This document shows, in pieces, positions 38,843 to 59,720 of a DNA stretch of 64,000 nt. Below the pieces are notes generated by a model that made no database searches, was not told where the DNA came from, and was given only the letters and a program-made list of their open reading frames with translations. Location of the stretch: the NCBI RefSeq assembly GCF_000967915.1, contig NC_022549.1:1600366-1664365 (forward strand), written 5' to 3'. How positions within the stretch are numbered: the stretch's first letter is position 1; every line of letters begins with the position of its first letter. Source of the DNA: Paracholeplasma brassicae (lineage in GTDB: Bacteria > Bacillota_I > Bacilli_A > Acholeplasmatales > UBA5453). Made by a program: the position numbers and the translations under genes.

Positions 38843-40069
38843 ATGAAACGAATTGTATTACTACTGACGCTCTTATTTTCAAGCCTCAGTTTAGCCTCTT
38901 GTTTAACGACAACAGATCCGTTAACGGTCACGTTTGAAGTAAACAACGAGGTCTATGAAACCCTTGAAGTCAACTCAGGTGAGGTCCTTACCTTACCAAA
39001 TGATCCAAGTGTTGAAAACTACGAGTTTAAAGGTTGGTTTTTTGACCCTTTATTCACAGATCCTTTCTCAAACGAATCTTATGAAGTCACTTACAGCTTC
39101 ACCTTATACGCAAAAATGCGTGAGCTTGACCCAGAAGCTGTGTATTTTCTAGTCACTTTTTATGATGATCAAACAGAATTAGCGTCATTACTTGTTGAAG
39201 AGAACACCACCATCCCAAACACAGTTGACACTTCAAAAGAAGGTTATTACTTTGCTGGTTGGTTTACCGATCAAGCACTAACAACGCCTTATGGCAGTCA
39301 AACACCAGTGGTAAGTGAACTTACCTTATACGGCAAATGGCATGAACAATCAGACGAGTACTTAGCTTATTATAGTGGCATTGAAGACCTTAGTGGGTCG
39401 ACACTCAAAAATAAGCTTGCAGAGATCATCAAAACAGGTTATAAATCGATTGGGTATTCTTCTACTTCCTACATCATTGAGGATTCTGATAAAACTACCC
39501 CACAAGCAAACACGTTATGGTTAATCTATAACAGTGGTAGTGCTAATGCTAAATGGGATAGTGCAGAAACGTGGAATAAAGAACACGTCTGGCCACGTTC
39601 GAAATTACCAAATTCAACCGCAGAATCCGATATCCATAACCTAAGAGCTTCAAATGTACAAGTCAATAGCTCAAGAGGTAATATGCCTTTTAGAGATTCA
39701 AGCGGTTCTTACAAATCCATTAGCGGTGGCTGGTACCCTGGGGATGAACATATCGGTGACGTTGCACGTATTGTTTTATACATGCATCTAAGATGGAACA
39801 TCGCCATCACCTCATCATCGATTGGTGATTTATCGATGTTCTTAGCATGGCACTTAGAAGATCCAGTCTCAGACTTCGAACGTAATCGCAACGAAGTCAT
39901 CTATCAAAACCAAAAAAATAGAAACCCGTTTATTGATCACCCAGAACTGGTTAGCATGGTCTTTGGAAACCAAAGCGTTTCTAATCAAGTGATTGAAGAA
40001 AAAACAACACTTGAACTGCCAACGACGTTAAGTTTTATCTTACCTTCGGTTGATTATCGAGTACAATAA
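38843..40069 (+). CDS. Secreted lipoprotein endonuclease I with two InlB-type repeats
   Basis: This is a 408-residue surface protein. The signal peptide ends in the lipobox SLASC. Two InlB B-repeat modules follow at about 25-95 and 98-165 (YEFKGWFFDPLF and GYYFAGWFTDQALTTP). The C-terminal half is an endonuclease I domain with KEHVWPRSKLPN (catalytic His), DIHNLRASNVQVNSSRGNMPF, YPGDEHIGDVARI, DPVSDFERNRNEVIY and KNRNPFIDHPEL. Endonuclease I enzymes cut DNA and RNA non-specifically with Mg2+. Outside the cell it would degrade environmental DNA for nucleotide uptake, a known lifestyle of Izemoplasma-like bacteria. It is monocistronic with a strong promoter and terminator. Confidence 0.92.
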   Translation: MKRIVLLLTLLFSSLSLASCLTTTDPLTVTFEVNNEVYETLEVNSGEVLTLPNDPSVENYEFKGWFFDPLFTDPFSNESYEVTYSFTLYAKMRELDPEAVYFLVTFYDDQTELASLLVEENTTIPNTVDTSKEGYYFAGWFTDQALTTPYGSQTPVVSELTLYGKWHEQSDEYLAYYSGIEDLSGSTLKNKLAEIIKTGYKSIGYSSTSYIIEDSDKTTPQANTLWLIYNSGSANAKWDSAETWNKEHVWPRSKLPNSTAESDIHNLRASNVQVNSSRGNMPFRDSSGSYKSISGGWYPGDEHIGDVARIVLYMHLRWNIAITSSSIGDLSMFLAWHLEDPVSDFERNRNEVIYQNQKNRNPFIDHPELVSMVFGNQSVSNQVIEEKTTLELPTTLSFILPSVDYRVQ

Positions 40070-50360: not shown

Positions 50361-51353
50361 TCAAAAACATAGGTTAGTATAACGCTCTTTTTGGTTTGGA
50401 TCAAGATATATCAATCGCTCGATGTATTCTTTTTTGATTAACACCTGATCCTCACTAATCACATACTCTTCTTTTTTAATGTTGGGGTTACTTGATAACC
50501 CAACAAATGAGCCCCCATACAAATCAAAGGTAAAAATTAGATCTGAACCGGTATACATGACATCACTACTTGAGGTGATTCTTGGATTAGGGTCAACCGT
50601 CAAATAAATAAATGTCACGTAATTCGTTTCGCCTCTAATTTCAAGCGGATAGATACCATCATTAAACTGATTTAAATAGTCACTAAAGACACTGAGTCGG
50701 TTGTCAATTATTTCATAAGAAGCTTCATCTACTTCATTACCGTTAAAATAGAGAACGCCAAAAAAAGAGGTTTGAAGACTTAATGACGTTTCATCTTTTG
50801 GTTTTGTGTAACCATCCACGTTAATATAAAACTCATGATCATAGACAACAACACCATTAAAAGTCGCTTTTATATGATATAAAACAAGACCATCTAAGGG
50901 CTCATAAGTCAATTGTCGTTCTTCAAGCTCATAGGATTTAACTTCAATGTTCTTATGTTTAACTGACACATGAAATGTTAAATCCGTCACTTCTGTTTGA
51001 AGACGAATAAATGATTCATCATAGATCAGTTCTAATTCAATGTCTTTGATAATGCTAAACTTATAATACTCAGAAAAATAAGACGACGCATCACCTTTAA
51101 CAGTTTTTACCATCACAACATAATTGCCTGTTAGATAATCACTTAAATCCACGAACGTATCTTTCGTTTCAATCAGTTTGTTGTTGATGCTTACGACATA
51201 AGCATCAGCACCACTTACCTCACCCCATGAAAGTAAAGACGTTGATTCACTAAAAACAACCTCTTTTGGAGGGGTTAATATTAATTCCGTTTTTTCTTTT
51301 GAACAGCTCGTTAGCGAGCACATCAATAACATCAATAACAACATTCGTTTCAA
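50361..51353 (-). CDS. Lipoprotein with fibronectin-III-like domain, unknown function
   Basis: This is a 330-residue protein, probably starting at TTG 51353 with AGAGGTG upstream; a GTG at 51362 overlaps that site. The signal peptide ends in the lipobox SLTSC. The first domain (about 35-100) looks like fibronectin type III (STSLLSWGEVSGADAYVVSI and GNYVVMVKTVKGD). The rest is beta-strand-rich without a recognised family. It is surface-anchored and lies next to a secreted nuclease locus, but no functional link is shown. It has its own terminator. Confidence 0.72.
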   Translation of the reverse strand: MKRMLLLMLLMCSLTSCSKEKTELILTPPKEVVFSESTSLLSWGEVSGADAYVVSINNKLIETKDTFVDLSDYLTGNYVVMVKTVKGDASSYFSEYYKFSIIKDIELELIYDESFIRLQTEVTDLTFHVSVKHKNIEVKSYELEERQLTYEPLDGLVLYHIKATFNGVVVYDHEFYINVDGYTKPKDETSLSLQTSFFGVLYFNGNEVDEASYEIIDNRLSVFSDYLNQFNDGIYPLEIRGETNYVTFIYLTVDPNPRITSSSDVMYTGSDLIFTFDLYGGSFVGLSSNPNIKKEEYVISEDQVLIKKEYIERLIYLDPNQKERYTNLCF

Positions 51354-51431
51354 GTAAATCACCTCTGTATTTTATCATATCATAATTTATAAAAATTGGC
51401 ACAAACTCAGTTTAGAGTTTGTGCCAATTAT

Positions 51432-52385
51432 TTAATTAATGAACTGACTTGAATTTGATACTGTAGAAGGATTATTTCCCCACAGTAAAGCAACATAATC
51501 CGGATTATCAATGAATGGATTTCGATTGTTTTGATAGTTATAAATTACTTCATTTCTATTTCGTTCGAAATCATCCACTGGGTCTTCGATGTGCCATTGT
51601 AGAAGTACAGACATCTTAGCCATGTAAGTGCCGTCTTCTTTGTAAGTCGCTTCATCCATCGCGCTTGTAATTACATTGACAATATCGAGATTCGGGTACA
51701 TGACTACCATATAAAATAGTATTCTAGCCACGTCACCCTTATCATCCTCGCCAGGGTAATAAGCGTCATTTGTTGTTGTAAAATCAAAATATTTGTTGCT
51801 TCGTGAGCTGTTTGTTGATTGAATGGTAGCTCTTAAATTATGTAAATCGGTTCCGATATTCTTTGTTGAATTACTTACTCTTGATACTCCAAGTCTAGAA
51901 TTTGGCCATACATGTTCTCTTGTATAAGTGGTTCCGTCCCATGCACCTAAAACTGATTGACGATCATAAATTGTCAATACATTGTTCGAGTTATTTGGGT
52001 CTTGATCAGCTTCATCTAAAATATAACGAGCATCACTATAAGATACCTTAATCATGTCGGCTTGAATGATCGATCTCAATTCTAAAAATAGTGTGTTTCC
52101 TGATAATCCCTCAGCACTACTATAATAAGCAAGCACATCAGGGTTTGATTCAACAACATCAGACACAGTAACGGTAAGCCTTAATTCTGCGGTGTTTCCT
52201 GCATTATCTGTTGCCTGATAAATTAATATATAGGTGCCAGCTATGGATGTATTAACAATCCCGTGACTTAAAAATTCGCAATCAACGGTTTCATCAACAT
52301 TATCTATACCCTCACACCATGTAGAAGCAATAATATCGCTAAAAGGGTCCCCTACAGTGTACGTTAGTATCGCTTCTTCATTCAT
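51432..52385 (-). CDS. Endonuclease I domain, probable C-terminal part of the large secreted nuclease (frame-broken)
   Basis: The frame contains an Ig-like DUF5011-type domain (TYTVGDPFSDIIASTW, ATDNAGNTAELRLTVTV) and a full endonuclease I domain. Motifs are REHVWPNSRLG, TDLHNLRATIQSTNSSRSN, YPGEDDKGDVARI, DPVDDFERNRNEVIY and NNRNPFIDNPDY. The first Met (52385) has no ribosome site and no signal peptide. The same frame continues upstream to about 52430 (VTPIVDNVAPTLS), where it meets the end of the large upstream gene in the other frame. It is therefore most likely the end of one secreted protein of about 1220 residues, broken by a one-base frameshift. If translated alone it would be cytoplasmic, which is unlikely for a nuclease. 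Confidence 0.8.
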   Translation of the reverse strand: MNEEAILTYTVGDPFSDIIASTWCEGIDNVDETVDCEFLSHGIVNTSIAGTYILIYQATDNAGNTAELRLTVTVSDVVESNPDVLAYYSSAEGLSGNTLFLELRSIIQADMIKVSYSDARYILDEADQDPNNSNNVLTIYDRQSVLGAWDGTTYTREHVWPNSRLGVSRVSNSTKNIGTDLHNLRATIQSTNSSRSNKYFDFTTTNDAYYPGEDDKGDVARILFYMVVMYPNLDIVNVITSAMDEATYKEDGTYMAKMSVLLQWHIEDPVDDFERNRNEVIYNYQNNRNPFIDNPDYVALLWGNNPSTVSNSSQFIN

Positions 52386-52423: not shown

Positions 52424-55108
52424 CTAGTCCAAGTAGGTAATAATTATACTATTGATATATATTGAATTTGTAGTTGTTGTAACTTCAATGCTAACAGCAC
52501 CAGAAAGATTATCAATCGAAACAATTCCCGCAGATCTTGGTGTTACTCCGCCAACTGTCGTTACCATATAAGTTTGAACAATGGATGAGCCAATTGACAC
52601 TTCTATTGTTCCCTTACCTTTAGATGCGTTTGTGGCATATATAACTTCAATTGCGACTATGTTATCGATTGACTTAGAAGTCCCTTTTGCACCAGAAGCG
52701 CCAGTTGAAACCTGAATTCCTTGAGTAGCAAATCCATTACCAGCCTTAACCAAAGTCCAATTTTCTGCAGTCTCATCTCCGCCATCAATCGATGAAGTTG
52801 CTTCCCATGATTTTGATTTAAATTTATATGTTATTTCTTTTTGAACTGCTGAAGAACCTTGTTTGTTTACCGTTATCACAAATGTTTTACTTCTTTCAAC
52901 ACCATTGAACACTCCAGTAGCAGTTAAAATTACTTCTGTATTTTCATCAGTAGGAAGTGTAACTACACCACTTATTGGGTTAATTAGAGTTTCATTTGAA
53001 GAGCTCCATGTAATTGTTGATCCATTAGTACCTATATCTATCAAATCTAATGTCGTGGCTTCAGTAATAACACTTGGCAGACTGATTGAGTTTAGGTCAT
53101 CTAAAACTTTTCCTTCATCTGTTTGTTCCCATTTTGCATACATATTTCTGTTGATTGTAGGCATCTTATATGGATCATCGTACTCAGTTGTTAAACTTTC
53201 ATTAAACCACCCTAAGAAAACATAACCTGTTCTTGTTGGTATTGGCAGAACGGCCTGTGATCCGATTTGAACGACCTGTGTTGCAGGCATTTGTCCACCA
53301 TCAGCACCATTATAATGGAATGTAATGGTCCTTGATTGTATTTCAAATTTTGCATACAACGTTCTTGACTGAATAATAGGACCACTAAAATCTACTTGGT
53401 TATTTTCAGCATCCAAATAGTACCAACCAACAAAATCATGATCTTCCTTGGTAGGTTCATATGTGATGCTACCGTTATTTGCAATCATTTCTTCTGTAAC
53501 AACACCATCGACATTGTACTTGATTTCGTGGATTGGTCCGTTGAAAGCATCAAACATTATATTAATCTCATCGATGTTAATTCTTTCACCTAATACAGCA
53601 ACTTCAAGTTTGACCCTAAGTAATTCTGATGTGGACAATGTTGACTCATTAAATAAACTTGAATTAGTTAAGTTTAAAGAATAGTCTTGTAGTTCCGAGG
53701 AAAGAGTGTTTCCTACCAAAGCATCGGTTACATCTACCCAATTAATCCCGTCGTTTGAAACACTTACTAAGACACTATTTGGATCATCACTACCATAAAT
53801 TGCTGCTTTAAACGTTATGTTAGTTATTCCTGAAAAACCGCTGTTCGTGTAAATTTGTCCTTTAGAACGAACAGAGTGTGTTCCTATTTTTAATGGATCA
53901 TCCGCAGCAACTAATGCCTCATCTAAAGTCCAAGAAATATCATTCACTATGACATCAGCTTTTGCATAACTTGCCTTACTGATTCCATCAAAACCTGCTG
54001 AATAAGTCCCTGCTTCTCCAATTGACTCAGGTGTTCTCTTATAATTCTCACTATAAATAACTTCTTCAACTGCCTCTTCGCCATTAGTGTTTAAGACAAT
54101 CAAGTAAGCTCTAATACTGTTGTAAGCGTCATTTTCAAAGGTTCTAAGGAACTCTCTTGTTTCACCATTGTGAACGTTTGAAGCAATGACCTTAGCGCCT
54201 AATGATTCTAGCGTTAAGACATCACTACTTCTTGAGATAACGAACCCATATTCAATAAGTTCATAGCCACTTGACAGTTCAAATTGACCAACGTATGAGG
54301 TTGTGTTATCACCTCTTAGTGATAACGTATCAGACATATTGACTAATGGTGTTGATGGTTTTTCATTACCATAAACCGCATTAACAGTAATGTCTTTAAA
54401 CACTGTGAACTTGTAAATACGGTTAGTCGATAAGACATGCCCTTTAGCATCTTCATAATGACTAAAAGGTACGCCTTCGTTTTCTAGGTTCGCAGTTAGG
54501 GTTGCTACTTCGTTATATTCATAGTTTGTTTTATTAGTCTCTGCGTTAGTTGTAACTGTAAAGGTAGAAACTTCGCTAACTGAATACTGTAAGAAGTAAA
54601 CACGGCTTGAGCTAATATCATCAAGTGAAGTAATCCCACTGGTTGTTTTCCACTTAGGGTTTGAGTGAACCATGTTTGGTTTACTTGGAAGATTTGCAGG
54701 TTCTGTTACACTTGCACCTGGTATGACATAAGTCACATCAAGTATATGGCCATTGGAATCTGCAAACACAACCACATGTTCAAGCGAACTACCGCCACGA
54801 TTGGCTTTATGAAAGATTGCGGTAATCTTTAGATTCGAGCGAACTGTGAACTGATAGTCTTCTGGTAAATCATCTCGGATGACACCATTGACAGCGTAAA
54901 ATGCGAAATCATAGTCACTAGGACCAGATTTCGAAAATGTAATTTTTTCACCACGTCGTTTGTTTGGTATCCCTGGGGAGGGATTGCCTTTTTGCGTGTT
55001 GTCTAAATACGTTTCAATCTCCACTGTGAAATTGTTGCTTGCCAAGATTGGCATACTTGCAACGAATAAAAATAAACCGAGTAATAGTGTAATAACTGTC
55101 TTTCTCAC
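52424..55108 (-). CDS. Large secreted multidomain protein, N-terminal part of a frame-broken nuclease
   Basis: This is an 894-residue protein from GTG 55108, which overlaps the stop of a 44-codon ORF by 4 bases. It has a signal peptide (MRKTVITLLLGLFLFVASMP, ending ILAS) and several beta domains. Two InlB-type repeats lie near 555-660 (HDFVGWYYLDAENNQ and GYVFLGWFNESLTTEY). An Ig-like region (TWSSSNETLINPISGVVTLP) follows, then a C-terminal domain with EVIYATNASKGKGTIEVSIG ending SIYINSIIITYLD. The stop comes just before an Ig-like plus endonuclease I region in the -1 frame. This and the homologous layout at 38843 suggest one split gene for a surface or released DNase. Confidence 0.82.
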   Translation of the reverse strand: MRKTVITLLLGLFLFVASMPILASNNFTVEIETYLDNTQKGNPSPGIPNKRRGEKITFSKSGPSDYDFAFYAVNGVIRDDLPEDYQFTVRSNLKITAIFHKANRGGSSLEHVVVFADSNGHILDVTYVIPGASVTEPANLPSKPNMVHSNPKWKTTSGITSLDDISSSRVYFLQYSVSEVSTFTVTTNAETNKTNYEYNEVATLTANLENEGVPFSHYEDAKGHVLSTNRIYKFTVFKDITVNAVYGNEKPSTPLVNMSDTLSLRGDNTTSYVGQFELSSGYELIEYGFVISRSSDVLTLESLGAKVIASNVHNGETREFLRTFENDAYNSIRAYLIVLNTNGEEAVEEVIYSENYKRTPESIGEAGTYSAGFDGISKASYAKADVIVNDISWTLDEALVAADDPLKIGTHSVRSKGQIYTNSGFSGITNITFKAAIYGSDDPNSVLVSVSNDGINWVDVTDALVGNTLSSELQDYSLNLTNSSLFNESTLSTSELLRVKLEVAVLGERINIDEINIMFDAFNGPIHEIKYNVDGVVTEEMIANNGSITYEPTKEDHDFVGWYYLDAENNQVDFSGPIIQSRTLYAKFEIQSRTITFHYNGADGGQMPATQVVQIGSQAVLPIPTRTGYVFLGWFNESLTTEYDDPYKMPTINRNMYAKWEQTDEGKVLDDLNSISLPSVITEATTLDLIDIGTNGSTITWSSSNETLINPISGVVTLPTDENTEVILTATGVFNGVERSKTFVITVNKQGSSAVQKEITYKFKSKSWEATSSIDGGDETAENWTLVKAGNGFATQGIQVSTGASGAKGTSKSIDNIVAIEVIYATNASKGKGTIEVSIGSSIVQTYMVTTVGGVTPRSAGIVSIDNLSGAVSIEVTTTTNSIYINSIIITYLD

Positions 55109-55239
55109 CAGTCACTACCCCAAAACTCTTCATTACCACTGGTACCAGAGGTGCCTTGCCCACTTAAAGCAATCGAGTCTTTTAATTCAAACTCTACTAC
55201 TTCTAGGGTAGGTGTTTCGTACTTCTGTTTTTCTTGCAT
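55105..55239 (-). CDS. 44-residue peptide with YxxPxL leader-like motif, candidate RiPP precursor
   Basis: ATG 55239 has a perfect AGGAGG ribosome site nine bases upstream, and a promoter lies at 55280-55308. The peptide begins with a charged leader-like part (KYETPTLEVVEFE, then LKDSIALSG). It ends with a Gly/Ser/Thr-rich stretch (QGTSGTSG) and NEEFWGSDW. The YxxPxL motif is what PqqD-type recognition elements bind in lasso-peptide leaders. The genes directly upstream encode a kinase-PqqD fusion, a peptidase and a nucleotidyltransferase. The TGA stop overlaps the GTG start of the nuclease gene (GTGA). No family is assigned with certainty. It could also be a small coupling ORF for the nuclease. 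Confidence 0.72.
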   Translation of the reverse strand: MQEKQKYETPTLEVVEFELKDSIALSGQGTSGTSGNEEFWGSDW

Positions 55240-55279
55240 ACTTTCTTTCCTCCTAGAGTCTATTTAATTCTATATATAT

Positions 55280-55308
55280 AGAATAGCACAGCAAACAACG
55301 TTTTGCAA
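55280..55308 (-). promoter_or_regulatory. Promoter of the peptide-nuclease operon
   Basis: On the minus strand -35 TTGCAA (55303-55308), a 17-base spacer and -10 TATTCT (55280-55285). The perfect palindrome TTCTATATATATAGAA (55268-55283) overlaps the -10 and could be an operator. Confidence 0.55.
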
Positions 55309-55345
55309 TGCAAAGTAAATAGATTATAGTAAAGATATTGTAAAT

Positions 55346-55372
55346 AAAAAGAAAAGGGCTTAGTAAAGCCCT
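55346..55372 (-). terminator. Terminator at the end of the nucleotidyltransferase gene
   Basis: AGGGCTT and AAGCCCT pair around a 4-base loop and include the gene's last codons; TTTTCTTTTT follows on the minus strand. Confidence 0.85.
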
Positions 55373-56523
55373 AAGGTGTCAAAAATATCTTCTATTTTCT
55401 TTCGTTCTTTTTCGCCTTGATTGAGTAATTTAACTTTTTTTGCGCTTTCTTTATGCCTAAACACAGCTAAATCAAATAAACGCACCAAATAAAACAATGG
55501 AATTAACCAAACATTTTTCTTCAAAATGGGATACATTTCTTTCATGTGCTTAAGACTTGGAAACACGGTTTGTAAAAGCACTCTAAATGGCCTTTTTTTA
55601 CTGTTCTTTGAATTGGATAATCTAGGTGCCATCGGATTGAATTGACTGCCTTTTCCGTGGATACCGGAGACAAAAATATAATCTACTAGCGCTTCTATTT
55701 TATCGTTTTCAATCATAAAACCAGCGTCCAATAAATCGGTTTCAATTTGAAAGAGTTTTTTGTTTAAAAAGAGTAAAACTTGATAAAACCGTTTCATTTT
55801 CATTTCAATAAGATAGGTTTCAATTCTATTATTGTCTATGTTGTCTTCGTATCTTTTTGCATATAAACCAATATCCAGTATACTTCTTAAACCTACACCA
55901 CTACTCTCGAAGTGTTTTGCCAAATGATACATCAAATAAAGCAGTTCAAAGGTTTCATCAAATGTATATTCATACCCTTTTAATGGTTTAAGGTAGTCGA
56001 GTGTGTTTCTAAAAAGTACGTACTTGTCATTAAACTCATGATCAAGTCTTGGATGAAGTTCAATTAATACACCCTCATTTGTTTCATACAAGTCGTGCGC
56101 AAGACTTCTAGATACCAAATTAATGTTTAATTCTTTAAGACATTTTTCCGCCTTTTGTAGTTCTTGATCTAGAAGTAAGACATCAATATCTCCCATACCT
56201 CTCATATAAGTATGCTCATAGAGTTCTTTAACTCTTGTCCCTTTTAAAAAGACAAATCGAATTTGATGCTCTTGAAATGTCTTTCTCAGCAACTCAATGA
56301 CTTTTTGTTGTTTCAGATCGGTTGTCACATAATCATAAAGTACCTGTGTTTTGTAAGTAACAAAGGATTGGCTTCTGTTGGTATCACTGATGTATGGTAA
56401 CACAAGACCAGATAACCCATTTTCCATTAGACGAACAAATATCTGTCTTTCGTCTGTGATTTTGCCTTCAAACGTTTCTTTTGATAACGCCTTAACGACT
56501 AACTCAGTAATTAAAGTTTTCAT
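55360..56523 (-). CDS. Nucleotidyltransferase family 5 protein (PF14907 type)
   Basis: This 387-residue protein matches the uncharacterised nucleotidyltransferase family found in RiPP and lasso clusters (PadeN-like). The motif FVFLKGTRVKELY at about 91-103, followed by RGMGDIDVLLLD with GDID at 111-114, supplies the metal-binding Asp pair. A helical domain follows (LYLMYHLAKHFESSGVGLRS). The C-terminus has hydrophobic and basic segments that may contact the membrane. It would transfer a nucleotide or similar group, perhaps to the peptide, but no substrate is established. It overlaps the peptidase gene by 4 bases. Confidence 0.85.
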   Translation of the reverse strand: MKTLITELVVKALSKETFEGKITDERQIFVRLMENGLSGLVLPYISDTNRSQSFVTYKTQVLYDYVTTDLKQQKVIELLRKTFQEHQIRFVFLKGTRVKELYEHTYMRGMGDIDVLLLDQELQKAEKCLKELNINLVSRSLAHDLYETNEGVLIELHPRLDHEFNDKYVLFRNTLDYLKPLKGYEYTFDETFELLYLMYHLAKHFESSGVGLRSILDIGLYAKRYEDNIDNNRIETYLIEMKMKRFYQVLLFLNKKLFQIETDLLDAGFMIENDKIEALVDYIFVSGIHGKGSQFNPMAPRLSNSKNSKKRPFRVLLQTVFPSLKHMKEMYPILKKNVWLIPLFYLVRLFDLAVFRHKESAKKVKLLNQGEKERKKIEDIFDTLGLY

Positions 56524-56930
56524 TTAAACACCCTAAACAGAAGCTTCTTAAATGGAATTAGTCCATAAAAACACACAATGAATTGATGTGTTATACTCGC
56601 TTCTTCTTTCTTTTTATTGTTGTGTTCGTAAAAGACTACTTTGCCATAAATATCACTTTTGTTTGGGAATTCTTTATAAAGACTGCCATCACCACGACAA
56701 ACCACCAAATGTTGATTGATCTTTTTTATACGATGCAAGTAATAACTGCCCTTATACTTAAATAATACGACGTCATTCTTCTTATAGGTCGATTTTTTTA
56801 AGTACACACTTGTTTTACCATCCTTATAAAATGGCCACATAGACTGCCCTTTAACTTTGAATGAGGTCAGTTTACCTTCATTTAGAGATTCAATGATCAG
56901 TGGCATTAAGGTTTCATTATTAATTATCAT
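56520..56930 (-). CDS. S24/S26-type signal peptidase-like protein
   Basis: This 136-residue protein has the S24/S26 peptidase fold. The nucleophile candidate Ser30 is in KVKGQSMWPFYKDG (G-x-S-M-x-P). A second active-site region is NDVVLFKYKGSYYLHRIKKI, where His66 or the nearby Lys could act as base. A hydrophobic tail (HQFIVCFYGLIPFKKLLF) may anchor it to the membrane. It overlaps both neighbouring genes by 4 bases. In this context it probably cleaves the leader of the modified peptide, which is an inference. It is shorter than ordinary signal peptidase I and lacks an N-terminal membrane anchor. Confidence 0.82.
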   Translation of the reverse strand: MIINNETLMPLIIESLNEGKLTSFKVKGQSMWPFYKDGKTSVYLKKSTYKKNDVVLFKYKGSYYLHRIKKINQHLVVCRGDGSLYKEFPNKSDIYGKVVFYEHNNKKKEEASITHQFIVCFYGLIPFKKLLFRVFK

Positions 56931-58015
56931 TTGAGTAGTTGGTGTTTCTTTAAATGCTCAATAAAACCAATGACGTCTTTTCTCGCAAGTTCTTCTGTTA
57001 CCTCATAACTGGCAGTCAACGCGTTTACTAAATCTTCAACGGTTTGTTCGTCTTTTAAACATTCAAATAATAACTTACCCGTTTTGTTTAATGTCATGAT
57101 ACCATTAAAATCCAGCGACGCTTCTTCTACTGGAATCACGATATATTTGCTACCTACTTCTCTTAGAACATACCCTGGTTTTAGTTGCATAAGTTTCTCC
57201 TTTATGATGTGATAATACGTCAGATAGACGGATTCAATCGAATTTGTTAGTATTGCTTCATGGATTGGTAACGTCAATAAATACTCAATGTTTTTAAAGT
57301 ATGCATCTAGAAGTTCTTTTTTGTCTGGTCTAAAACTGTTCATGATCAACTGCTTTAGTTTCTCATCAATGGTTAAAGTTCTAACTTCTAAAGGTCCTTG
57401 TTTAATGAAATAGATACTTCTTATATGATATACTTCATTTTTATTGTATCGATTTTTACCTGAGAAAGGTGTGCCATAGACCATACCATCTTTGATCAGT
57501 GGCTTATCATCATTTAAAATAAATGCGTCTCTAAATGCTTCTAAGTAATAATTCGAATGCGTACTTTTCCCTGTGCCCGATGGCGCACAAAATAAATACG
57601 CTTCGTTATTCTTAACAACCACAGAGGCATGAAGGTTAATGTAACCTAGACGTAAAGATAGTTCAAGAAAGCTCATCGAAACCAAAATGTATTCTGCTTC
57701 GTCAATCTTCGTTTCTTTCGAAGATATTAAGATAGATTGATTGATACAGTCTTTATCATAACTGATTTGATAACGAATATGGCCTTCTTTATGATAGACC
57801 TGGACCGTTGTATTGCCATCATTTTGGAAAATACGTCGGTAAGTGCTTTCCTTAACTAACCCCTCTGATAAAGGTAATATCTCATCTGCTTGCCTGACGT
57901 CAATGACATAGGCAGGTTGATGTGTCGATTCATACGGCTTTAAACTGTTTGTAAGAAACGATTGTTCAATTTGATTAATCCTAAGATTGATGCCTGCAAT
58001 TTGATAGTTACTCAT
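56927..58015 (-). CDS. HPr-kinase-like domain fused to a PqqD-like RiPP recognition element
   Basis: This is a 362-residue fusion. Residues of about 120-270 form an HPr-kinase/phosphorylase-like ATPase with LHASVVVKNN, Walker A CAPSGTGKST (143-152) and ILNDDKPLI. The last 87 residues (276-362) are PqqD-like: KPGYVLREVGSKYIVIPV, LNKTGKLLFECLKDEQTVED, then an alpha-helical end. HPr-kinase homologues phosphorylate the last Ser of lasso peptides such as paeninodin, and PqqD-type elements bind YxxPxL leaders. Here both are in one polypeptide, so the enzyme likely recognises and phosphorylates the 44-residue peptide or a relative. It is the first gene of the three-gene operon. Confidence 0.85.
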   Translation of the reverse strand: MSNYQIAGINLRINQIEQSFLTNSLKPYESTHQPAYVIDVRQADEILPLSEGLVKESTYRRIFQNDGNTTVQVYHKEGHIRYQISYDKDCINQSILISSKETKIDEAEYILVSMSFLELSLRLGYINLHASVVVKNNEAYLFCAPSGTGKSTHSNYYLEAFRDAFILNDDKPLIKDGMVYGTPFSGKNRYNKNEVYHIRSIYFIKQGPLEVRTLTIDEKLKQLIMNSFRPDKKELLDAYFKNIEYLLTLPIHEAILTNSIESVYLTYYHIIKEKLMQLKPGYVLREVGSKYIVIPVEEASLDFNGIMTLNKTGKLLFECLKDEQTVEDLVNALTASYEVTEELARKDVIGFIEHLKKHQLLK

Positions 58016-58038
58016 TGCTTCACGTCCATTTCAATTTA

Positions 58039-58068
58039 ATTATAGCATAGATAAAACTATATTGTCTT
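58039..58068 (-). promoter_or_regulatory. Promoter of the kinase-peptidase-nucleotidyltransferase operon
   Basis: On the minus strand -35 AAGACA (58063-58068), 18 bases, and an extended -10 TGC-TATAAT (core 58039-58044). The gap to the divergent ABC gene is under 100 bases, so both directions may be co-regulated. Confidence 0.55.
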
Positions 58069-58112
58069 CCCATTATAAAGTTGTGTTACACTATTATTAA
58101 GAGGTGAGGTCA

Positions 58113-59720
58113 GTGCGAATTATTCCAACATTTTTTAAACCCTACTCAGCATTCATTAAGAAACCCGTGATATTATTATCGTTATCATCGATTGTAATGT
58201 CGATTACTGCCGTTTCTTTTGCTTACTATTCAAAAACAACCATCGACTATGCCGTCGATAAAAATGATCAATTTTATAAATATGGTGTCCTACTCATTTT
58301 TATTCTTGTGACACAGCTCTTATTCCAAACGTTTTCATATTACTACAAGTCATACGCTTATAATAAACTCTATTCAATGCTATTTAGGGATTACTATCAA
58401 GTTCTTATTCGTGGTGACTATCAAACACTAAAGAAAACACATAAAGAAACCTACCTTCATCTATTTAAACAAGACTTAATGTTTACAAGTGAAGCGATCA
58501 TTGATGTTTATCCAAAGTTTCTATTCTTCATATTAAGGTTTCTGTTTGCCTTTGTCGTTTTATATCTTGTCTCTGATGTATTTGCGTTACTATTTTTGGG
58601 TCTTGGCCTACTTTTACTAGCCTCGGCCTTACTCATCAAAAAACCAATTAGACAGTCACATCAACAGGCCCTTGAACAAGAATCATTATTATTCCAAGAG
58701 ATGAGTGAGTCTTTAACACACTTAGAAGTGATTAAGAGTTTCCAAATCGAATCACAAATGTCTGATACAATCAAAAAAACTTCTGATGATTTGTTTATTA
58801 GACGAATGAAAAAACAAAAAATTAGCGTTTTTTCATCTCTAGGTATGAATGTATTCTTCGGTTTTGGTTATGCATTCTCTATCGTCTTTGGTGCTTATCA
58901 AATCAGTTTAGGTCTTCTATCAATCGGTTCTTTAACCGCCATTATTCAATTAGTTTCCAATATCCAAAACCCGTTTTCAGGGTTATCTCAATTAATTCCT
59001 AAGTACTTTCAAATGAATGCCTCGATTGAACGTCTAGAGGTGCTAAATCAAATTGAAAAAGAAGTGATTATCAAACAGACACCTACTAAATTTGATAAAA
59101 TCATATTCGATAAGGTGTCATTTTCTTACACTGATAAACCAGTTCTAAAAGATTTGAGTCTGACGTTAGATAAGAACAAAATTTACTGGTTAAAAGGCCC
59201 TTCAGGTTTAGGGAAAACGACCCTATTAAAACTATTACTGAGTTTGTTAGAACCCACTGAAGGACAAATACTACTTGAATCTGAATCCAACATTATTATA
59301 GGAAAACACACCAGAGACTATTTCGCTTACGTCCCTCAAGATTCATTCTTACTTCAACAAACCATCAAAGACAACCTTACTTTGGGTAAGGACGTCCAAC
59401 TAGAAACACTCAATAAAGCTTGTCAAATAGCCTGTGTGCTAGAAGTCATCAATGACCTACCTTTGGGCTATAATACCCTACTAGGTGAAGGTGGCTATGG
59501 GTTATCCAATGGTCAACGCCAACGACTGTCGATTGCAAGAGCACTCATTAAAAACTGCCCAATCGTCCTACTTGATGAAGCAACTTCTGCTCTTGATAGA
59601 GAAACAGAAACTATACTCCTTACAAACCTATCTAAATTAAGTGACAAAACAATTGTCATTGTGTCTCACCATGATTTAAGTGCGTATGGGTTTAATGAAA
59701 TTGATTTATTAAAACACTAA
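58113..59720 (+). CDS. ABC exporter with fused membrane and ATPase domains
   Basis: This is a 535-residue protein, probably from GTG 58113 behind GAGGTGAGG. Six membrane helices lie in about 20-300. The ATPase domain follows: Walker A GPSGLGKTT, signature LSNGQRQRLSIARAL, Walker B PIVLLDEATSALD and switch His in VIVSHHDLS. No C39 peptidase domain is present, so it would need another protease, such as the S24/S26-type protein, to remove a leader. It is divergent from the kinase-PqqD operon and probably exports the modified peptide as a homodimer. Ordinary lipid or drug export cannot be excluded. Confidence 0.87.
   Translation: MRIIPTFFKPYSAFIKKPVILLSLSSIVMSITAVSFAYYSKTTIDYAVDKNDQFYKYGVLLIFILVTQLLFQTFSYYYKSYAYNKLYSMLFRDYYQVLIRGDYQTLKKTHKETYLHLFKQDLMFTSEAIIDVYPKFLFFILRFLFAFVVLYLVSDVFALLFLGLGLLLLASALLIKKPIRQSHQQALEQESLLFQEMSESLTHLEVIKSFQIESQMSDTIKKTSDDLFIRRMKKQKISVFSSLGMNVFFGFGYAFSIVFGAYQISLGLLSIGSLTAIIQLVSNIQNPFSGLSQLIPKYFQMNASIERLEVLNQIEKEVIIKQTPTKFDKIIFDKVSFSYTDKPVLKDLSLTLDKNKIYWLKGPSGLGKTTLLKLLLSLLEPTEGQILLESESNIIIGKHTRDYFAYVPQDSFLLQQTIKDNLTLGKDVQLETLNKACQIACVLEVINDLPLGYNTLLGEGGYGLSNGQRQRLSIARALIKNCPIVLLDEATSALDRETETILLTNLSKLSDKTIVIVSHHDLSAYGFNEIDLLKH

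What the first reader, a model, noticed from the sequence alone, without database searches (positions are those of the whole stretch)
55105..59720. RiPP-like peptide locus with lasso accessory parts but no cyclase
A 44-residue ORF with a YxxPxL motif sits beside an HPr-kinase-like/PqqD fusion, an S24/S26-type peptidase, a family-5 nucleotidyltransferase and an ABC exporter. Kinase, PqqD-type element, nucleotidyltransferase and exporter are known accessory parts of some Firmicutes lasso clusters. The asparagine-synthetase-like cyclase and transglutaminase-like protease are absent from the window. This suggests a different peptide modification, perhaps phosphorylation or nucleotidylation, with an S24/S26 protease removing the leader.
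Basis: partly seen in the sequence, partly recalled or inferred. Interest (0 to 1): 0.88.

Follow-up and report, generated by a model that had tools for sequence, protein, structure and literature searches.

The report
Phospho-peptide locus tied to surface proteins
A wall-less bacterium carries the genes to make a small phosphate-tagged peptide of a kind first described in 2026, and here the peptide gene is joined, overlapping, to the gene of a large secreted adhesin-like protein, which gives a first clue to what such peptides may be for.

Summary
The 44-aa ORF is a genuine RiPP precursor: homologues sit in the same slot in five genus-mates, with a conserved leader and a variable core. All five partner genes are intact. 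No Asn-synthetase-type cyclase is detected in the genome. It matches the "linear polyphosphorylated peptide" (LPP) family of Popov et al. 2026 (PMC13381572) gene for gene. Kinase motifs, the Ser-His-Asp peptidase triad and the RRE residues N33/D70 are conserved.

New here: (1) kinase and RRE are one fused protein in this genus. (2) The precursor has its own promoter-like element and overlaps (GTGA) the gene of a large secreted protein that starts with two InlB-B-repeat-like domains. This pairing recurs over Acholeplasmatales, Izemoplasmatales and relatives, even far from the modifying genes, and was not seen for 20 precursors outside this group. A secreted nuclease and a lipoprotein often follow. 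(3) Relatives whose core holds a Cys also hold a radical SAM enzyme.

Verdict: new variant of a known kind. The chemistry in this organism is inferred; the function of the peptide/adhesin pair is open.

The parts
55105..55239 (-). RiPP precursor (LppA-like), 44 aa: MQEKQKYETPTLEVVEFELKDSIALSGQGTSGTSGNEEFWGSDW; leader YxxPxL...EFxLxDSIA, predicted cut after A24, predicted phosphosite S26, variable middle, C-terminal EE[IF]WG
   Evidence: ORF and SD; homologues and alignment; pN/pS. Cleavage and phosphosite are inferred from the conserved [A/T] at P1 and Ser at P2'
55360..56523 (-). NTP_transf_5 nucleotidyltransferase (LppN/PsmN-like), GDxD motif D112/D114 conserved
   Evidence: Pfam PF14907 5e-36; conservation in 35 homologues
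56520..56930 (-). SipW-type signal-peptidase-like leader peptidase (LppS-like), triad S30/H66/D81
   Evidence: PF00717; triad invariant in 42 of 42 homologues; LppS triad S29/H68/D93
57206..58015 (-). HprK-like kinase half (LppK-like) of the fused protein, Walker A S146-GTGKST, N168-D-D-K
   Evidence: HprK-like alignment A3, conservation in 58, PEPCK/HprK fold
56930..57190 (-). PqqD-type RiPP recognition element (LppB-like) fused C-terminally to the kinase
   Evidence: PF05402 1.7e-14; profile hits TfuB1, TbiB1, PbaB1 and LppB structures; N35/D72 of A2; fold match to TbiB1 TMt 0.79
58104..59720 (+). ABC exporter without peptidase domain (LppD/MsbA-like), divergent
   Evidence: Pfam/NCBIfam; at the same place in the genus-mates with intact flanks, and in several other loci
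55355..55372 (-). Terminator-like hairpin at the stop codon of the nucleotidyltransferase gene
   Evidence: similar hairpins visible at that place in L023-L025 and L067
55280..55308 (-). Promoter-like element of the precursor unit (TTGCAA, 17 nt, TGcTATTCT); TTTGAATTGC...TGCTATAAT in genus-mates
   Evidence: read by eye from the alignment of the upstream regions; not listed by the consensus scan
52424..55108 (-). Large secreted protein (894 aa), GTG start overlapping the precursor stop (GTGA); Flg_new x2, aBig_2
54575..55033 (-). N-terminal domain of the secreted protein: two InlB-B-repeat-like beta-grasp modules, the conserved partner of the precursor
   Evidence: alignment A5, model pLDDT 91, Foldseek to InlB B-repeat TMt 0.76, genome search
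51432..52385 (-). Endonuclease_1 (PF04231) with Ig-like domain
   Evidence: PF04231 1.2e-30; recurs in 20 of 47 loci
50361..51362 (-). Lipoprotein of unknown function, recurrent partner
   Evidence: 22 of 47 loci; sub-threshold CBM_X2; LTSC lipobox read from the sequence

Best explanation
This is an LPP-type RiPP locus with a coupled adhesin. The fused kinase-RRE binds the YETPTL leader and phosphorylates a Ser just after the leader (predicted S26). The SipW-like peptidase then removes the leader (predicted cut after A24). The nucleotidyltransferase homologue may decorate the phosphate, perhaps with a hexose as reported for PsmN. The divergent ABC transporter exports the roughly 20-residue linear core. 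The precursor is made from its own promoter together with a large Sec-exported protein that begins with tandem InlB-B-repeat-like domains, plus a secreted DNase and a lipoprotein. I infer that the mature peptide acts outside the cell together with that surface protein, as ligand, cofactor or tag. Shown: gene set, conserved residues, conservation, coupling. Inferred: phosphorylation, cleavage and export in this organism, the promoter, and the peptide/adhesin partnership.
For: Same gene set as the experimentally tested lpp cluster. Triad S30/H66/D81 invariant in 42 homologues; kinase P-loop and NDDK conserved; GDxD of the nucleotidyltransferase conserved. RRE N35/D72 conserved; PDB profile hit to LppB 9x8z at 1.4e-5. 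AlphaFold model: PEPCK/HprK fold plus a TbiB1-like RRE. Leader and [A/T]-x-S junction conserved in most of 24 precursors. Precursor and core co-occur (38 of 66 vs 5 of 329). 38 of 50 precursor hits are followed at -25 to +18 nt by a signal-peptide protein; N-terminal regions of 34 of the 38 are one homologous group. Genome-wide, 33 of 48 N-domain hits have a precursor less than 600 nt upstream. Coupling in 12 of 12 precursors of named Acholeplasmatales and allied records, 0 of 20 elsewhere. Terminator-like hairpin and conserved promoter-like element before the precursor.
Against: No experiment in this organism. The rest of the published LPP leader consensus (HQxIxFET) is not kept literally; ungapped alignment to LppA would put the cut after S22 instead of A24. 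Coupled translation may mean only shared expression. EndoI is multi-copy in this genome, so the nuclease may be incidental. The precursor and N-domain profiles were built from loci near the core genes, so their co-occurrence is partly circular, although many hits lie far away. In two loci (L032, L033) the precursor precedes the kinase gene and no coupled secreted protein was found. The promoter was not flagged by the consensus scan.
Confidence: 0.72

Rival explanations
1. It is an ordinary LPP cluster whose peptide acts on its own (signal, antimicrobial, envelope modifier); the surface protein genes are only co-transcribed and have no direct link to the peptide.
For: LPP clusters elsewhere lie by capsule loci rather than surface proteins; 20 precursors outside this group lack the coupled protein.
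Against: Coupling holds across many genera and for pairs far from the core genes; the N-terminal domain is nearly confined to genomes with precursors (30 of 33 genomes).
Confidence: 0.2
2. A degenerate lasso peptide cluster that lost its cyclase and B2 protease.
For: Kinase, RRE, nucleotidyltransferase and exporter are shared with paeninodin-type clusters.
Against: No cyclase hit in the genome; in 38 related genomes none of the PF00733 hits lies in the fetched core loci; it has its own SipW-type peptidase with an intact triad; leader is YxxP with RRE N/D, not the paeninodin WxxP with Gly.
Confidence: 0.03
3. The small ORF is a translated leader or regulatory uORF of the surface protein gene and not a RiPP precursor.
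For: It overlaps the downstream gene and has its own promoter-like element.
Against: Peptide-level purifying selection, lasso-type RRE-binding motif, co-occurrence with an RRE-containing operon, Cys cores tracking a radical SAM enzyme in relatives.
Confidence: 0.04
4. The nucleotidyltransferase adenylates the conserved C-terminal Glu (EE[IF]WG) and drives a macrocyclisation, so the product is cyclic without a lasso cyclase.
For: The conserved acidic C-terminal motif and the conserved GDxD active site are otherwise unexplained.
Against: PsmN is linked to glycosylation of the phosphate; deletion of lppN changed nothing in the LPP host.
Confidence: 0.04

Closest known systems
Linear polyphosphorylated peptides (LPP), Paenibacillus alginolyticus lpp cluster (PMC13381572)
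   Same: Same six parts: precursor with YxxP leader, HprK-like kinase, RRE, SipW-like peptidase, nucleotidyltransferase, MsbA-like exporter; no cyclase
   Different: Kinase and RRE fused; leader ends DSIA|xS and not FET|AQS; core about 20 aa with C-terminal EE[IF]WG against 45 aa; coupled to a secreted B-repeat protein, nuclease and lipoprotein, not to capsule genes; host is a wall-less mollicute
Paeninodin-like and pseudomycoidin lasso peptides
   Same: HprK-like kinase, RRE, nucleotidyltransferase, exporter
   Different: No cyclase, no B2 found near it; YxxP and not WxxP leader; SipW-type leader peptidase
Sactipeptide-type radical SAM RiPPs (for the Cys-containing relatives only)
   Same: Radical SAM enzyme beside a Cys-containing core in relatives
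   Different: Window locus has neither; relatives keep the LPP set as well

Membership tests
LPP RiPPs | SipW-like peptidase with Ser-His-Asp triad beside an RRE | tested here: met
   S30/H66/D81 invariant in 42 of 42 homologues; adjacent to the RRE gene
LPP RiPPs | HprK-like kinase, NTP transferase and MsbA-like exporter in the cluster | tested here: met
LPP RiPPs | Discrete RRE | tested here: not met
   Fused to the kinase in the window and its genus-mates; discrete in other genera of the group. I therefore call it a variant of the family and not a standard member
LPP RiPPs | RRE with Asn33/Asp70 for a YxxP leader | tested here: met
   N35 and D72 in A2, spaced 37 as in LppB
LPP RiPPs | Leader consensus YxxPxVLxHQxIxFETxxS | tested here: inconclusive
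   YxxPx[LIV] and an [A/T]xS junction kept, the middle differs
LPP RiPPs | RRE falls in the LPP clade of the RRE tree | not tested
   The authors' RRE data set was not at hand
LPP RiPPs | Polyphosphorylated Ser, RRE-dependent leader removal | not testable with these tools
   Needs mass spectrometry
Lasso peptides | Asn-synthetase-like macrolactam cyclase | tested here: not met
   No PF00733 in the complete genome; controls ring in 11 of 14
Lasso peptides | B2 transglutaminase-like protease | not tested
   None among the proteins of the locus scanned; not searched genome-wide
Paeninodin-type lasso peptides | WxxP leader and Gly at the RRE position of N33 | tested here: not met
   YxxP and Asn

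The most novel reading that the evidence does not exclude
A two-part surface system: each mature phosphorylated (or glycosylated) peptide is a dedicated partner, non-covalent or covalent, of the secreted protein whose N-terminal B-repeat-like domains are encoded right behind it. One central maturation operon serves several such pairs per genome, so the peptide is in effect a prosthetic group or tag for a surface protein rather than a free natural product.
Probability: 0.33. Interest if true: 0.85.

Novelty: new variant of a known kind. Interest (0 to 1): 0.63.

Why it matters
The final structure and the biological role of LPPs are stated to be unknown. A precursor that is translationally coupled to one family of secreted B-repeat proteins over many genera, including pairs far from the modifying genes, turns "what are these peptides for" into a direct binding and knock-out test. 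The radical SAM/Cys subgroup suggests that the same chassis carries a second chemistry, and the kinase-RRE fusion offers a single-chain enzyme for in vitro work.

Tried and rejected
Single-sequence scan of genome contigs with the fused protein found nothing; the alignment-based scan worked. Lasso cyclase: none in the genome and none in the fetched related core loci. Rfam: no RNA family in 50-60 kb. An 18-bp palindrome before the precursor (55267-55284) looked like an operator but is not kept in genus-mates, so dropped. EndoI as a strict partner: weakened by four Endonuclease_1 ORFs in this genome and presence in only 20 of 47 loci. Exact radical SAM/Cys match: holds for 9 of 9 core loci with a Cys precursor, but at genome level two Cys genomes lack the enzyme (both also lack the kinase) and two enzyme-bearing fragmented genomes show no Cys precursor. 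Several Pfam calls failed on wrong coordinates and were redone.
Full report
The observation. The window lies in a complete 1.88 Mb genome. One genus-mate, G008, has a contig of 27,574 bases that matches Paracholeplasma vituli NZ_JAOEGN010000019.1 in length and content, so the host is placed in Paracholeplasma or close to it (Acholeplasmataceae, Mollicutes). The size fits what I recall for Acholeplasma brassicae (from memory, not tested). On the minus strand, in order: HprK-like kinase fused to a PqqD domain, an S24/S26 peptidase, NTP_transf_5, the 44-aa ORF, a large secreted protein (894 aa), an Endonuclease I and a lipoprotein. An ABC exporter is divergent.

The small ORF is real. It has a strong Shine-Dalgarno, and homologues lie in the same slot in five genus-mates. 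Substitution pattern: pN/pS 0.26 in the leader and 0.64 in the core. Across 24 precursors Y7 and P10 are invariant, and F17 and A24 nearly so. The shape is a conserved leader YExPxxEVxEFxLxDSIAxS, a variable middle and, in many, a C-terminal EE[IF]WG. A profile of these finds precursors in 43 of 395 class genomes; 38 of the 43 are among the 66 with the HprK/PqqD core, against 5 among the 329 others (Fisher 1.5e-29). This is partly circular, because the profile was built mainly from core-linked sequences, but many hits are remote from the core.

No lasso. No Asn-synthetase domain is found in the genome, while 11 of 14 control genomes ring. In 38 relatives PF00733 hits occur in 16 genomes, none within the fetched core loci.

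What it works like, and what it is. Popov et al. (PMC13381572) described linear polyphosphorylated peptides: LppA precursor, LppK (HprK-like), LppB (RRE), LppS (SipW-like peptidase), LppD exporter, LppN nucleotidyltransferase, no cyclase. In B. subtilis LppK puts several phosphates on core S3 and LppS removes the leader after T-1 with the help of LppB; lppN deletion had no visible effect. The window has every part. Peptidase: S30, H66 and D81 are invariant in 42 of 42 homologues, matching S29/H68/D93 in kind and order. Nucleotidyltransferase: D112 and D114 invariant in 35. Kinase: P-loop and NDDK kept. RRE: N35 and D72 of alignment A2 are 37 apart, as are N33 and D70 of LppB, the two residues that fix a YxxP leader; the profile finds TfuB1, TbiB1, PbaB1 and LppB in the PDB. 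An AlphaFold model of the fused protein (pLDDT 90.6) matches PEPCK and HprK folds in the first part and TbiB1 (TMt 0.79) in the second. The "discrete RRE" feature is not met in this genus (fusion), though it is in other genera, and the middle of the published leader consensus differs. I therefore call it a variant of LPP. Predicted junction: the position 14 residues after the Pro is Ala or Thr in most precursors, which recalls the published Px9Fx[T/A] motif, and two residues on there is a Ser. This gives A24|L25 and S26 as phosphosite; an ungapped match to LppA would give S22|I23. Both are inference. The nucleotidyltransferase step is the least certain: for the homologue PsmN, hexoses on the phosphorylated Ser were reported.

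The new part: coupling to secreted proteins. The precursor stop and the GTG start of the 894-aa protein overlap (GTGA). Among 50 precursor hits in the class, 38 are followed at -25 to +18 nt by a protein with a signal peptide (simple hydrophobicity rule); several of the rest are at contig ends or are fragments, and L032 and L033 are true exceptions with the kinase gene next. N-terminal regions of 34 of the 38 form one homologous group, while the C-terminal parts vary (Flg_new, LTD, F5/8C, aBig_2). The N-terminal domain folds as two InlB-B-repeat-like beta-grasp modules (pLDDT 91; B-repeat TMt 0.76) and members match Pfam Flg_new or MucBP weakly, so it is a relative of known adhesin repeats and not a new fold. 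Searched over 395 whole genomes, 33 of 48 hits at about E<=1e-9 have a precursor less than 600 nt upstream, and 30 of 33 genomes with the domain also have a precursor. Several genomes have more than one pair, remote from the maturation operon. In named records the coupling holds in 12 of 12 precursors of Acholeplasmatales, Izemoplasmatales and allied MAGs, and in 0 of 20 from Clostridia, Streptococcus and others. Some of these named records are the same genomes as the G handles, so the counts are not independent.

Transcription. A terminator-like hairpin sits on the nucleotidyltransferase stop codon and genus-mates share a promoter-like element between that gene and the precursor. The precursor is thus probably transcribed with the secreted proteins and not with the maturation genes. 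The promoter was read from the alignment; the consensus scan did not list it.

A second chemistry in relatives. Nine core loci with a precursor whose core has a Cys all have a radical SAM gene (PF04055) next to the kinase (one only as a fragment at a contig end); the core loci with Cys-free precursors have none. At genome level 13 of 15 Cys genomes have the enzyme (Fisher about 1e-5, table compiled by hand, phylogeny not corrected). The window has neither.

Judgement. The chemistry is best explained by a published family, so the finding is not categorically new. A word search of the main text of that paper finds no mention of radical SAM enzymes, surface proteins or endonucleases, and the "fusion" hits there are cloning constructs; its supplements were not readable here. 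Confidence is 0.72 for the LPP-type mechanism with the surface protein as partner; the last step carries most of the doubt.

Noticed in passing
L063, L065, L072, L073, L075, L080, L082, L084, L092 (core loci); L188: Radical SAM enzyme next to the kinase exactly in core loci whose precursor core contains a Cys (CGEEIF-like); none in core loci with Cys-free precursors.
   Followed up: partly
L072:6879-8762 (+): One 627-aa ORF fuses a radical SAM domain (res 4-319) to the HprK-like kinase (res 342-620), a second fusion of this toolkit.
   Followed up: no
L187, L181, L132: Cricetibacter, Streptococcus merionis and a Synergistaceae MAG carry the same HprK/PqqD/S26/NTP5 set with one to six precursors, such as YQKPEFKTVTFEKEDVITTSGG; no coupled secreted protein.
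   Followed up: partly
window about 39395-39946 (+) and genome positions 634024 and 1237676: Three further Endonuclease_1 ORFs in the same genome beside the one at 51432-52385.
   Followed up: no
genome position 1582083-1582346 (just outside the window): A 6,240-aa open frame with a weak hit to the B-repeat-like N-domain; similar giant ORFs (about 4,400-6,300 aa) in relatives.
   Followed up: no
window 55267-55284: Perfect 18-bp palindrome ATTCTATATATATAGAAT over the -10 region of the precursor promoter; not conserved in genus-mates.
   Followed up: yes
L033:8685-9548 and L032:10685-11612: In other genera of the family the precursor sits directly before a short kinase gene, with core motif GEWW; a sub-type not coupled to the B-repeat protein.
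   Followed up: no
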